From: Physcomitrium patens
Taxonomy: Eukaryota; Streptophyta; Bryopsida; Funariales; Funariaceae
Direction: 5' to 3'
Length of the DNA: 64,000 bases
Assembly (NCBI RefSeq): GCF_000002425.4
Contig: NC_037261.1
Location: forward strand, 2,154,659 to 2,218,658
In this document: positions 57,054-64,000 of the stretch, piece after piece
Position numbering within the stretch: the first letter of the stretch is position 1
Layout: the number at the start of each line of letters is the position of its first letter
Notes under the pieces: model-generated
What the model saw: only the letters and a program-made list of their open reading frames with translations
The model's database searches: none
What the model was told of the DNA's origin: nothing
Made by a program: the position numbers and the translations under genes

Positions 57054-57115
57054 ATATAGTTTGAAACATTTCAGCTTAAATAACATTATTTAAGCTGAAA
57101 TGTTTCAAACTATAT
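57054..57115. repeat. Perfect palindrome with 30-base arms
   Basis: Arm 57054-57083 is the exact reverse complement of 57086-57115, with only CA between. The arm includes 'gtttgaaacatttcagctta'. No mismatch in 30 pairs, in a neutral AT-rich spacer. Confidence 0.9.
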
Positions 57116-58893: not shown

Positions 58894-61802
58894 ATGGGTA
58901 ATAAGTTAGCTCGAACGACGCAAGCTTCGGCGTCGGAGTACTATTTGCACGACCTGCCTTCTTCCTATAACTTGGTGTTGAAGGAGGTTCTAGGAGGTGG
59001 CCGGTTTTTGAAGTCAGTTCAGTGTGTCCATGATGAGGGACTCTTGCTTGTGAAGGTTTACTTCAAACGAGGCGAATCTCTTGATTTGAAGGTTCGATTC
59101 ATTTCATACAGTTTGTCCTTTTCTTTTTTTCTTTTCTGTAAAAACAATTATTAGGATGAACATGTATAAGCGTCATTATCGATTATTACGTACTGTCGTC
59201 TTGATGGTTGTAATTTTACTGCAGTCTGTTGTAGTGGGTGCAACATTTGTAAGAAGCCCACCATGCTGCTGAAGCTTGCACATGTTCATCCTAATTTGAG
59301 TTCTTTTGTTAGACTTGGCCGGTTTCGAAGTTCCTTTGTTGATACTTATGTGTTTATTTTTCATATTTATGAAGGAGTATGAGAGAAAACTACGAGACAT
59401 TCGAGATCGTTTGAGGAATATTGAGCATTCACATGTTTGGCCTTTTCAAGTAAGTATATCATATCAATATCTATTATTGTTGGCACTCGTAATCAAGATC
59501 TAAGTTGCTTGTCGTGGATACATTTGCTTGATTTCAATCTGTGTTATCTCTTCCTATTTACTCATCTGGTCATTCATTGGCCTGGGATGTGCTTTCTTTG
59601 CTTGTATAATGTGTACTTGAAGAATCCACGTATGACTTTTAACACAACTCTTGCATGTAATAGCACTGGATTGAGACTGACAAAGCGGCTTATTTGCTAC
59701 GTCAATACTTCTTTAGTAATTTGCATGATCGCATCAGCACTCGTCCATTTCTCAGCCTCATTGAAAAGAAGTGGCTCGCCTTTCAGGTAAGTCCAGCTCT
59801 CTTTACATGAAGTCTACAGTGTTGTCTGTTTTGCAACAATTTTCGTATCCTATTATTCGAACCTTCCGTTTCTGATTTTTAGAGCTCACATTTAGATAGC
59901 TGCTGCTAAAAACTTGAACCTCACAGCCTCTCGGTTTTTACAGCTTCTGCATGCTTTGAAGCAAAGCCATGAACGTGGAGTTTGTCATGGTATAAGTTCA
60001 ACTCTCAGGCTTTTCATGTAGAATATACTGCTGATCATAACGCCAATCACCTTCCGGGTTTAATGGTGTTCCTGTTCATCATGCTCTTCTTTGTGTAATT
60101 AGTACCGATGTGTTTTCCACGCACACTACATGAAGCTTTGTGGTTTTATAACGAAAACTGAATACATATTTATGAGTCTACCACCTTTGGTTTAACATCC
60201 CGCTGGCGGACAATAAGATCCATTAATTTTATTGTGAAGTGTTCATTATGTGCTCTCTTATTGTTAAAATTTTTTATTCCATTTCTTGTCGGGTATATAT
60301 TAGTAGGTTGCTCATTCTTTTCAAGGTGTCGCTTAATTAGTGAATGGTTGTGGCAGGGGACATAAAGTGCGAAAATGTCTTGGTGACCTCATGGAATTGG
60401 GTATATTTAGCAGACTATTATGGGGCTCTTAAGCCCACTTTCTTACCGGCGGACAATCCTGCCGATTTTTCTTTCTTCTTTGACACAGGGAGTCGGCGTC
60501 GATGCTATCTTGCACCTGAGGTACAATCATCTTTCTGGTATTGACGTGTAGTACGCATGGAATTTGTGCTGCACATATGCTTCTGCTCTACGTAGCAACG
60601 TCTTTATTTTCCATCCCTTTTTTCCCTGTTTCTTTTTTTAACTGTTCTGATATGGTCTGAGGATATAAACTAAACTATAAAAGCGAGATAAATCTCAATC
60701 ACATGTAAATGTGGTTGAGATTTGGACATGCTGATTTGTTTAGTAAGTTTGAATGTCAAGAAATGTAAGATGCTATAAGACTCATAGCTTTTGTTGGTTG
60801 ATTTAGCGGTTCCATGAGCCAAATGTCGACATGCTTGCGACTTCAGATGCTCCTTTGACGCCTGCAATGGACATTTTCTCTCTTGGGTGAGTTATCTGTT
60901 TGGCTGAGACCATCTTGATTGCTATTTTCAGTTTAAGGTGAAATGGCTATGTTGATCTCATAATCTCGATGGATAATGGTGGGCACAGTATTTCTGATAT
61001 ATGATTGTTTACTAGAGCAGATGTCCTCATTGCCATTATGTAGGACTGCTCACCTGTATGTGAAGCTGTTGACTTGTTACTGGCATATCAGGTGCGTAAT
61101 AGGCGAGATGTTCTTAGAAGGGAAAGCGTTATTCGATTTGTCTCAGCTGCTGGCTTATCGTCAGGGAAAATTCGATCCTCGGTCATCTCTTGAGAAGGTG
61201 GGTCATATCTCTGAAGGTGCTTTTCGTCACAAGCTTGTCATTCTTAATCTTTGGTAAATTCTTAATATACGAGGCAACAAGACGACAGGCAGCTACTTCT
61301 TGTGGTCAATGTGTGAAAGTAGCTCTAAGATGCATATGGGCATAAATTGTGTGATTTTTGGGCATCTATCTTTATTAATTGTATTCTGCAGTTGCCATAA
61401 ATGTTTTTCATAATCTGCTTATTTCTTGGAAGGGCTGATTCATGTTATATTTCTTAACTGCTATACTTCAGTCAGTCATATATCTGGGACAGAGCGCTTT
61501 TGTTTACTTACTATCAAACTGAAAGGCGGACACAAATATGTATTTATAATGGTCTCACTTGCAGATTCCAGATGAAGGAGTCCGTGCTATGATCCTGGAC
61601 ATGATCAACGTCCTTCCAGAGAAACGGTTATCTGCAGATCAATACCTAAAGTTGTGGTGTCCTATAGTATTTCCAGAATACTTCTCACCTCTGTTGCACG
61701 ACTTCTTCTCGTACCTAGTTCCACTGGATACTGACAATCGAGTAAGTGATCATTATTTTCACCCCTTATTTTTACTGATGATTTTTTCCTTCTTCTTATT
61801 TA

Positions 61803-61835
<33 letters not shown>

Positions 61836-64000
61836 TTCCCTCTTCTTCTTCTTCAATTCGGTTTGTATAAGTGCGGGTATCAATAGTTTTGTGACTAGCG
61901 TATTATAATTTAAGTAGGTCCAACCAGTTCTCAAATTTTTGAATCAATTTGCATTAAGCTACTTTCAGGCCTGACAGGATCAGTAATATTGTAGCCTGTT
62001 AATCCTTCTGCTTCTTTTGTTTGTGCGTTTGCTTTGATAAGGTGGCTCTTACACAAAGCTTTTTCCCGGAAATTCGCAAGCAAATGCAAATTGATTCTCG
62101 AAGGAGGCAGTTTGCGGAGGCAAATGGTGATGGCATTGCTGATCTGGTACTAGGTACGAGAAGGCTTAATTTGTCGCCGACACAGAAGCAGAAAAACTTA
62201 TACGATGGAGATTTTATTGTAAATGAACCATTCATTTTAGAATCAGCGAGACTTTTGTCGGAAGGTCAGACCAGGTCCGTTACTCTATGTGCATCTTCGC
62301 ACCGCATCAAAGCTGCTGCGGTGGCAATGACAGAGGCAGCTTCTGCTCTCGAAGAAGTTGTTACTGAAGAGGTTAGAAATTCAATAATTCTCCTTTTCTG
62401 CTTTTGAACTACTTTTACGATTAGATGGTCAGTTCTTAGATACTTTTATGATCAAATATCCTCTACCGAAGAGATTTCCAAGCTTATCTGAGGCTCAAGT
62501 GTGGTAATACTCGCGTTGTATTTAATCGTTTTACGGTTTCCGCAGGTACTTGAGAATCAAGTTCGAGAACCAGGTGGTACATTCTATGAGCGTCTTCTTC
62601 ACACTGTTGAAGCTTCCATGGCTACCCATGGAATACCAGGACGTTGCAAAGATGATGTTACTCTTCCTTTGGAGGGTGGATGGAGGTGGGATGGAGACTG
62701 GGAAGTCGACCCTAGCTGGGTTCATAGTGGTACGTCGAACCTTGTCATGATCGCCTTTTGTGTGATTTATCGCTTAAGATTCTAGCCCTCTCTCTCATGC
62801 GATAGTTGAATATGCACATTTCAATGCAAATTCAATAAGGTGAGTTGTCTCTTTTACGAAAAAATTAGATAAGTGGGTCAAGTTTGAATTTAACGCCTGA
62901 GCTTTGTCTCAGACTTGCTGATGCACTGCCAAACTAGCAATTATTTCACTGAATTGCTAGTTTATTTCTAGGACTAGCCACCGTTTAGGCTATAGTCTTA
63001 AAGGGGAGGTCGCATGATTGAATATCTTGGATTTATCTTCCGTTAAAATTTTGTGTGCAGCAATAAATTTGACTTGTTTTGAAAGTGAAGTATATCTAAG
63101 AACCCACTTATTATGTTTAGCTTGTGCTTGTCTTAGCAGCAGGAGTTGGAGCTGATGAGGAAGGGTGGAGGTATCGTAAGGTAAGCACCGGGGGTGATGA
63201 AGGTGAAGTAGACACTTCTGTTAAAAACGCGGGAGATGTTACTATAAAAGGGAATAGTGTAGGGGATTGCACTCTGAAACGAACCCCTCCTGTCAGTCGT
63301 AGTTGGACATCCACTTGTACTCCAGATTGTGTATGGAGACAAAGGAAATGGATACGCAAACGTCGAAGACGACCGTGTCACTTAGATCTGATCTCGCAAC
63401 AGAGCATCGGATCAGAGAGTCAAGGACAGGGATTATTACCAGAAGCTTCAAAGATCCCGGAAAGTGGTAATGAAGGAACGCATGATCAAACCCAGCAATG
63501 CGAAGGCATGGTGTTAATTGCAGCTCTCTTATGTGCCTGCCTACGTAATGTCAAGCTCCCTCAAGCTAGGCGGGGAACCATCCAGTTATTGAAAGAAGCT
63601 TCATCGTACATAGAGGATGATGCTCGACTTCAACACGTCATACCTTACGTTGTCGCTCTCCTGTCCGACAATGCTGCCATTGTTCGATGCACCGCTCTTC
63701 AGACTCTATGTGATGTCTTGTCTCTGGTGCAGGTATTTCTTCATTCTTTTATTCTAATCTACTCTTGTTAGTTTCTATTATTGCTTTTGCATTGTCTTCT
63801 TCGCTGGTTACAGAGTAATTTGATAATATTTGAAGTTGAGCAGGGTTATCGCATGTAATGAATATTGTCGCAAAGCAGGTTGCATCAGGTTTTTGGGTTT
63901 TCTTCCTCTTGTGGTTAGTGCCGCAGCTAATGACCTCAGCTGGAATGGGAGTTTCTAAGCGCGACACAATTAATTGTCTACAGGTTTTTCCACCAAGTGA
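58894..64000 (+). CDS. VPS15: Vps15 / PI3-kinase regulatory subunit 4, partial, with dysferlin-like insert
   Basis: Exons: 58894-59091, 59375-59449, 59664-59786, 59944-59989, 60357-60520, 60807-60886, 61092-61197, 61565-61741, 62042-62371, 62546-62729, 63137 (or 63140/63143)-63732, 63984 onward; the window ends inside the last. About 691 residues precede it. It starts MGNK, so Gly2 can be myristoylated. The kinase-like domain (about 26-310) has HGDIKCEN (147-154), but D-Y-Y instead of DFG (167-169) and no standard Gly loop, as in other Vps15 proteins. HEAT repeats begin near residue 612 ('[19 protein letters not shown]'). Known role: scaffolds Vps34 for PI3P production in autophagy and endosomal sorting. 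Between them, residues 434-575 hold an unusual W/R-patterned segment resembling DysFN-DysFC (see findings). The exon 2 acceptor is weak (aag at 59374). C-terminal WD40 repeats would lie beyond the window. Confidence 0.92.
61803..61835. repeat. (TTA)n microsatellite in a Vps15 intron
   Basis: Eleven TTA triplets within the intron after exon 8. Confidence 0.85.

What the first reader, a model, noticed from the sequence alone, without database searches (positions are those of the whole stretch)
62546..63375. Vps15 with a dysferlin-type (DysFN-DysFC) domain between kinase and HEAT repeats
Exons 10 and 11 encode [10 protein letters not shown] (residues 479-488), then D-E-E-G-W-R-Y (499-505), then after about 45 residues [22 protein letters not shown] (549-570). 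This is the tryptophan and arginine signature of dysferlin/Pex/TECPR DysF domains, including the C-V-x-R-x-x-W-I-R core. The flanking exons are clear Vps15 (kinase-like domain before, HEAT repeats after), reading frame is continuous, and phase 1 at 62729 joins exon 11 correctly. From what I know of Arabidopsis Vps15, this interval is a plain linker. The DysF domain of TECPR1 binds sphingomyelin exposed on damaged organelles. A DysF inside Vps15 could therefore bring PI3-kinase to damaged membranes; that is inference.
Basis: partly seen in the sequence, partly recalled or inferred. Interest (0 to 1): 0.8.

Follow-up and report, generated by a model that had tools for sequence, protein, structure and literature searches.

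The report
Membrane-type dysferlin domain inside moss Vps15
In the moss Physcomitrium patens, the core autophagy and endosome protein Vps15 carries a dysferlin (DysF) domain, a fold otherwise known from membrane-repair and lipid-binding proteins of animals and fungi, which suggests an extra way for its lipid-kinase complex to grip membranes.

Summary
The window holds the 5' part of a Physcomitrium patens VPS15 gene; its 697 predicted residues match the public 1772-aa protein. Exon 10 and the first 236 bases of exon 11 encode a DysFN-DysFC domain between kinase and HEAT repeats, from [11 protein letters not shown] to [12 protein letters not shown]. All eight Trp/Arg stacking residues named for TECPR1 are present. 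A profile of six plant copies finds two of 177,635 PDB sequences: the TECPR1 and dysferlin DysF domains. A template-free model of a relative's copy has DysF structures as Foldseek's four top hits; the model of the P. patens copy itself was too poor to use. The domain occurs in 10 of 192 fetched VPS15 proteins: two P. patens genes, two Sphagnum species (one copy lacking the first strand), a presumed moss transcript and the lycophyte Diphasiastrum. None of the other 182 (liverworts, ferns, Selaginella, seed plants, other Sphagnum proteins) has it. Best reading: an old membrane-lipid-binding insert at the catalytic arm of class III PI3-kinase, later lost in several lineages. The sphingomyelin idea is not supported: the TECPR1 tip residues are mostly replaced. 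Lipid binding itself is untested.

The parts
58894..59091 (+). VPS15 exon 1, start codon and N-terminus (MGNKLA...), kinase domain begins
   Evidence: match to PIK3R4 1-331, E 2.5e-87
59375..61741 (+). VPS15 exons 2-8 (59375-59449, 59664-59786, 59944-59989, 60357-60520, 60807-60886, 61092-61197, 61565-61741): rest of the Vps15 kinase-like domain
   Evidence: Pkinase E 5.3e-21; matches P0001
62042..62371 (+). VPS15 exon 9: variable linker after the kinase, ending in the segment [23 protein letters not shown]
   Evidence: KAAA-type segment also in liverworts, ferns and Selaginella without DysF
62546..62729 (+). VPS15 exon 10: DysFN half, residues 434-494 ([11 protein letters not shown] ... [18 protein letters not shown]), phase-1 donor at 62730
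63143..63180 (+). start of VPS15 exon 11: end of DysFN, residues 495-507 ([13 protein letters not shown]); NAGNAG acceptor 63140/63143, public protein uses 63143
63181..63297 (+). expanded tip loop between DysFN and DysFC (residues 508-546), polar and poorly conserved
   Evidence: 15-49% identity over aligned positions to four relatives; W503 to R560 is 57 residues, against 21 in TECPR1 (numbers from PMC10476172)
63298..63378 (+). DysFC half, residues 547-573 ([27 protein letters not shown])
63379..63732 (+). rest of VPS15 exon 11: second variable linker, then HEAT repeats from [12 protein letters not shown] on
   Evidence: residues 616-695 of the 697-aa model match PIK3R4 373-452; Pfam HEAT E 0.0087, below the Pfam cut-off
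63984..64000 (+). start of VPS15 exon 12, cut by the window end

Best explanation
The gene is the Physcomitrium patens ortholog of VPS15/PIK3R4, the scaffold of class III PI3-kinase. Between its kinase domain and HEAT solenoid it carries a complete DysF domain whose tip loop is enlarged. The domain is a homologous insertion shared by mosses and at least one lycophyte, so it most likely predates the split of those lineages and was lost later in others (inferred from sequence and position). I propose that it acts as an extra membrane-lipid-binding element beside the Vps34/Vps15 catalytic arm. Its Trp/Arg-stacked core would be the scaffold, with loops at the distal end touching acidic lipid, phosphatidic acid being the first candidate, so that the complex stays on the right membrane when PI3P is made. 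Shown: gene structure, domain identity, position, conservation. Inferred: membrane contact, ligand and effect on the kinase. My confidence is about 0.95 for the domain identity, 0.8 for one ancestral insertion and 0.5 for lipid binding as its main job.
Against: No lipid-binding test was possible. The loops that touch lipid in TECPR1 are mostly changed, and the tip loop is long, about neutral (charge +1) and fast-evolving. The P. patens domain has net charge -1 by the count, whereas PMC10476172 speaks of abundant positive residues in the TECPR1 domain. Pfam Pex24p stays under its curated cut-off of 26.8 bits for the window's copy (23.4, 19.4, 23.0), and the whole 697-aa query gave no Pex24p row at all with E up to 10; of the ten carriers only P0011 has PF06398 in the precomputed list. 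The model of the P. patens copy itself was poor (mean pLDDT 47.6) and its Foldseek search showed no DysF among the 50 rows shown of 76. The model that did match has mean pLDDT 56.9. AlphaFold2 was trained on PDB entries (recalled), so the fold match is not fully independent. Against Diphasiastrum and S. fallax the DysF halves (48 and 67%; 62 and 56%) are less conserved than the kinase (77%; 81%) and HEAT start (70%; 76%). The domain is absent from most plant lineages sampled, four of the five listed S. fallax isoforms lack its first strands, and the S. troendelagicum carrier P0121 lacks the first strand and has no VPS15 kinase part.
Confidence: 0.55

Rival explanations
1. The domain is a true DysF fold but serves as a protein-protein or regulatory module of the PI3-kinase complex (binding ATG14, VPS38, a Rab or a moss-specific partner), not as a lipid binder.
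For: Tip residues used for lipid in TECPR1 are largely replaced and the tip loop is long, polar and variable. [quoted passage not shown] Human VPS15 has protein-binding sites on its solenoid, such as one for RAB5 (PMC13218723, abstract and passages).
Against: DysF domains of Pex28, 29, 30 and 31 and the inner one of human dysferlin bind phosphatidic acid in vitro (PMC12101078, passages), so lipid binding is the commonest property reported in the papers seen. No conserved non-DysF surface was identified here.
Confidence: 0.3
2. One reading: a sphingomyelin- or damage-exposed sphingolipid sensor that brings PI3-kinase to ruptured endomembranes, as TECPR1 brings ATG5-ATG12.
For: The nearest solved structures include the TECPR1 N-terminal DysF, and both proteins act in autophagy.
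Against: Of the 7 alignable residues that TECPR1 needs, one (L88) or two (C157 too,'s alignment only) are kept, and the segment carrying W154 is replaced by a longer loop (for the list; alignments). Sphingomyelin is not a plant lipid (recalled); a plant sphingolipid such as GIPC would have to take its place (inference).
Confidence: 0.08
3. A relic: an ancestral DysF under relaxed constraint that folds but no longer does anything.
For: Absent from 182 of 192 fetched VPS15 proteins. One stacking Trp is replaced in S. fallax (GGGRWD), listed isoforms there lack the first strands, and P0121 of S. troendelagicum lacks the first strand in a gene model with a foreign N-terminus.
Against: The two halves are better conserved than the linkers on either side in all four comparisons made, from the second P. 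patens copy to Diphasiastrum, and 31 columns are invariant among six copies.
Confidence: 0.06
4. Chance resemblance of a Trp- and Arg-rich linker, or a wrong gene model that joins a foreign exon.
For: Single-sequence E-values are modest (0.022 and 0.026) and the Pfam score is under its cut-off.
Against: Profile, fold and control comparisons single out DysF. The same insertion occurs in other mosses and a lycophyte, and in one contig too short for introns.
Confidence: 0.01

Closest known systems
TECPR1 N-terminal DysF (PDB 8p5p)
   Same: Whole fold, ENQ start, Trp/Arg stacking set, RxRKWIR end; acts in autophagy; DysF inserted into a larger scaffold protein
   Different: Sphingomyelin-tip residues mostly not kept; tip segment 36 residues longer; host protein is a beta-propeller ATG5 adaptor, not a PI3-kinase subunit
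Dysferlin and myoferlin inner DysF (PDB 4cah, 2k2o)
   Same: VFENQTRLPGG ~ [11 protein letters not shown]; same core residues; the W that precedes the RRRRW motif at the same distance
   Different: Ferlin DysF is a nested pair inside C2-domain membrane proteins; PMC2923515 (passages) says ferlins are not in plants or fungi
Pex23/Pex24/Pex30 family (Pfam PF06398)
   Same: Pex24p profile matches over its DysF end
   Different: Only about the last third of the profile is matched, under the cut-off for the window's copy; PMC8172628 (section 18) treats the family as fungal and its metazoan relatives as TECPR1
VPS15 / PIK3R4
   Same: N-terminus, kinase-like domain and HEAT start; WD40 end in P0001; same gene family
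   Different: Other VPS15 have a DysF-free linker: 41 residues between the matched parts in human PIK3R4, 300 here
VPS38 of P. patens
   Same: Another subunit of the same complex that keeps a lipid-type domain (C2) in P. patens but not in Selaginella or seed plants (PMC6016017, passages)
   Different: Different subunit and different domain; the parallel is only in the pattern of presence and loss

Membership tests
DysF domain (DysFN-DysFC) | Sequence match to known DysF domains over both halves | tested here: met
   both halves aligned, only DysF found; the second half scores weakly on its own; first half
DysF domain (DysFN-DysFC) | Four Trp and four Arg that stack to hold the loop (TECPR1 W116, 118, 122, 138; R159, 161, 165, 167 in PMC10476172) | tested here: met
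   W479, 481, 485, 503 and R560, 562, 566, 568 (alignments)
DysF domain (DysFN-DysFC) | Finger of long antiparallel strands with wrapping loops | tested here: inconclusive
DysF domain (DysFN-DysFC) | SMART DysFN (SM00693) and DysFC (SM00694) score cut-offs (accessions recalled) | not testable with these tools
   SMART is not among the libraries; PMC2923515 says DysF was in SMART but not Pfam
DysF domain (DysFN-DysFC) | Phospholipid binding | not testable with these tools
   needs protein and liposomes
TECPR1-type sphingomyelin-binding DysF | Residues R76, W77, C84, L88, L89, S90, I142, D143, K152, K153, W154, C157 | tested here: not met
   1 or 2 of 7 alignable residues kept (C157 depends on the alignment); 5 of 12 fall in a segment that cannot be aligned
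Pex23/Pex24 peroxin family | Full Pex24p profile above the curated score | tested here: not met
   23.4, 19.4 and 23.0 bits against 26.8, no row for the 697-aa query; coverage starts at profile position 239 of 358 at the earliest
VPS15 / PIK3R4 | N-terminal kinase-like domain of VPS15 type | tested here: met
   residues 1-315 to PIK3R4, E 2.5e-87 for the whole match
VPS15 / PIK3R4 | HEAT solenoid and C-terminal WD40 | tested here: met
   HEAT start 616-695. The WD40 end lies outside the window and is listed for P0001 (PF00400)
Class III PI3-kinase complex | Assembly with VPS34, ATG6 and ATG14/VPS38 | not tested
   no structure or interaction data used for P. patens

The most novel reading that the evidence does not exclude
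The DysF was part of VPS15 in the common ancestor of mosses and vascular plants, as one of several direct lipid-binding modules of the class III PI3-kinase complex. Vascular plants then stripped the complex down: Selaginella and seed plants lack both this DysF and the C2 domain of VPS38 that P. patens keeps. Mosses and club mosses would thus preserve an older, multivalent way of placing PI3P synthesis, and DysF would be a general lipid-binding domain reused in peroxins, ferlins, TECPR1 and Vps15.
Probability: 0.3. Interest if true: 0.75.

Novelty: new variant of a known kind. Interest (0 to 1): 0.6.

Why it matters
Vps15 is the shared core of the class III PI3-kinase complexes, and its domain plan (kinase, HEAT, WD40) is usually treated as fixed (recalled). 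A conserved DysF inside it would be an additional membrane-contact element in a machine whose membrane targeting is under active study. It would also place DysF in land plants: the passages seen here describe it in ferlins (not in plants or fungi), TECPR1 (metazoa) and Pex23 proteins (fungi). P. patens is easily gene-targeted (recalled), and at least two VPS15 genes there carry the domain, so its role can be tested by deleting only the domain. The protein record is public. No paper with both 'DysF domain' and 'VPS15' is in the held library (0 papers). The one paper there with both 'VPS15' and 'Physcomitrium' (PMC9807217, passages) mentions VPS15 once, about Arabidopsis mutants.

Tried and rejected
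Structure of the window's own copy (collected): mean pLDDT 47.6 with a six-row alignment. Its Foldseek search gave 76 matches with E up to 10, none under 0.001, and no DysF among the 50 shown. I did not use it as evidence either way. A second job with the P0002 copy first, which has the shortest loop, gave 56.9 and the DysF matches. Choosing the second sequence came after the first failed, so the fold evidence rests on one of two models.

DysF-only protein search: 3 of 183 candidates at E up to 0.01, all VPS15. It missed the S. fallax protein P0003 that one search had found, so absence in that search means little. The 1182 and 187 proteins found were each listed only to rank 120, and one search scored only the 7994 candidates sharing most words. 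No alga or hornwort was among the names I saw, and few mosses. Absence counts are for 192 proteins, and gene-model errors could hide some domains.

Whole-genome search for the paralogue's DNA, for dN/dS and intron comparison: not completed. Paper search 'VPS15'+'dysf' mostly matched 'dysfunction' and was useless; some searches gave background only, though two of them led to papers used (PMC7946940 and PMC13218723, PMC6016017).

Repeat artefact: the repeat finder showed nothing notable in 62000-63800. Sphingomyelin sensor: see rivals.

Full report
What is there. The 3' end of the window carries, on the + strand, the first twelve exons (the twelfth cut) of a VPS15 gene. I rebuilt it from the DNA: all 11 donors are GT, all 11 acceptors AG, and the frame stays open for 697 codons. 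A search of about 5.8 billion proteins returned a 1772-aa P. patens protein, annotated 'serine/threonine-protein kinase VPS15 isoform X3', at 100% identity and coverage (rounded; my query had one extra alanine from the alternative acceptor). The window is therefore P. patens or something indistinguishable at protein level here. The protein begins MGNKLA; residues 1-315 match human PIK3R4 (E 2.5e-87 for the whole match), and residues 616-695 match the start of its HEAT solenoid. Between these matched parts human PIK3R4 has 41 residues and the moss protein 300.

The domain. Residues 434-573 of the public protein (62546-62729 plus 63143-63378) are a DysFN-DysFC domain. A profile from six plant copies (alignment A2) again gives only these two, at 0.0072 and 0.001, with both halves aligned; the second half scores weakly on its own. 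The only Pfam family hit by the isolated region is Pex24p, whose C-terminal region contains DysF (PMC8172628, section 18); all six members hit it (best 1.9e-6). The window's copy stays under the curated cut-off of 26.8 bits: 23.4, 19.4, 23.0, and no row at all for the whole 697-aa query. hhalign of A2 against TECPR1 plus dysferlin scores 92.6 with 98.7% probability, aligning the first half; 100 column-shuffled versions reach at most 25.8 and the reversed alignment 13.3.

Core and tip. PMC10476172 (abstract and passages seen) names four Trp and four Arg that stack in TECPR1; by the alignments all eight are present here (W479, 481, 485, 503; R560, 562, 566, 568). The same paper names twelve residues needed for recruitment to sphingomyelin-exposing membranes. 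Seven can be placed: L88 is kept, C157 is kept's gapped alignment but not's, and five are replaced. The other five lie in a segment that is 57 residues from W503 to R560 here against 21 in TECPR1 numbering. So the core of the domain is intact and its distal end is different. PMC12101078 (passages) reports phosphatidic acid binding by Pex30-family DysF domains and human dysferlin's inner DysF, which makes PA the first ligand to test. That choice is inference.

Relatives. The two large searches gave 192 VPS15 proteins. Five of these ten built the HMM. P0004, P0005, P0062 and P0063 match from profile position 29 and P0121 from position 14, so their first strands are missing; P0121 also has a non-VPS15 stretch before the domain and no kinase domain in its Pfam list, and P0011's model begins inside the kinase domain. 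The 182 without a hit include liverworts (Calypogeia, two Riccia, Marchantia paleacea), ferns (Adiantum, Ceratopteris), Selaginella, Cryptomeria, Taxus, many angiosperms and other Sphagnum proteins (P0006 to P0009). S. troendelagicum has one protein with and one without (P0121, P0007). In P0001, P0011, P0002, P0003 and P0010 the domain sits at the same place, after an [13 protein letters not shown] segment and before the CEGMVLIA start of the HEAT repeats, so one ancestral insertion is simpler than several. That the domain was then lost in liverworts, ferns, Selaginella and seed plants follows if the species tree is as usually drawn (recalled). I saw no algal or hornwort protein.

Constraint and expression. 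Between the two P. patens copies the DysFN core is 82% and DysFC 93% identical, while linker 1, the tip loop and linker 2 are 55%, 49% and 59%. P0002: 79 and 85 against 56, 48 and 38. S. fallax P0003: 62 and 56 against 51, 25 and 24. Diphasiastrum: 48 and 67 against 32, 15 and 18. In all four the halves are better conserved than linkers and loop; in the two distant ones they are less conserved than kinase and HEAT. P0002 has 804 codons on a 2540-nt contig, too short for introns, so it is probably a transcript in which the exons are joined; I have no reads for P. patens itself.

How it may work. [quoted passage not shown] A DysF tethered directly after the VPS15 kinase domain would be near the bilayer, where a lipid-binding finger could hold or orient the arm. 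This is a proposal. A protein-binding role is the main rival, because the tip is so changed. PMC6016017 (passages) reports that P. patens VPS38 keeps a C2 domain that Selaginella and seed-plant VPS38 lack. The same split is seen here for the VPS15 DysF in P. patens, Selaginella and seed plants, though Diphasiastrum has the DysF and its VPS38 was not examined. I note this as a lead.

Known or new. The protein record and its exons are public; P0011 carries PF06398 in the precomputed Pfam list, the other nine carriers do not. No paper in the held library has both 'DysF domain' and 'VPS15', and ten hold 'dysferlin domain' and 'plants', none of which concerns VPS15 by title. PMC2923515 (passages) states that ferlins are not in plants or fungi. 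I file the finding as a new variant of a known kind: a genuine VPS15 with a DysF domain. It is not a Pex24-family peroxin and not shown to be a TECPR1-like sphingomyelin sensor.

Noticed in passing
window 57054-57115: Perfect 30-bp inverted repeat with a 2-nt loop (57054-57083 / 57086-57115), about 1.8 kb upstream of the VPS15 start codon, in AT-rich DNA.
   Followed up: no
window 63140-63145: NAGNAG acceptor at exon 11: use of 63140 or 63143 would add or drop one alanine inside the DysF domain; the public protein drops it.
   Followed up: partly
proteins P0004, P0005, P0062, P0063 (Sphagnum fallax): Four of the five listed isoforms of one S. fallax gene lack the first strands of the DysF, while P0003 has them: possible regulated splicing of the domain or a model artefact.
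   Followed up: partly
protein P0121 (Sphagnum troendelagicum): The DysF-bearing VPS15 model has a cysteine-rich stretch before the domain that is not like VPS15, in place of the kinase part: a fused or broken gene model, or a broken gene.
   Followed up: no
window 62303-62329 (residues RIKAAAVAM): A basic alanine-rich segment before the DysF has counterparts in VPS15 of the liverworts, ferns and Selaginella shown although they lack the DysF, but was not matched in the five seed-plant proteins shown there.
   Followed up: partly
window 1-64000: No Rfam family reaches its gathering score in the window; GC by 4-kb block swings from 0.21 to 0.44.
   Followed up: no
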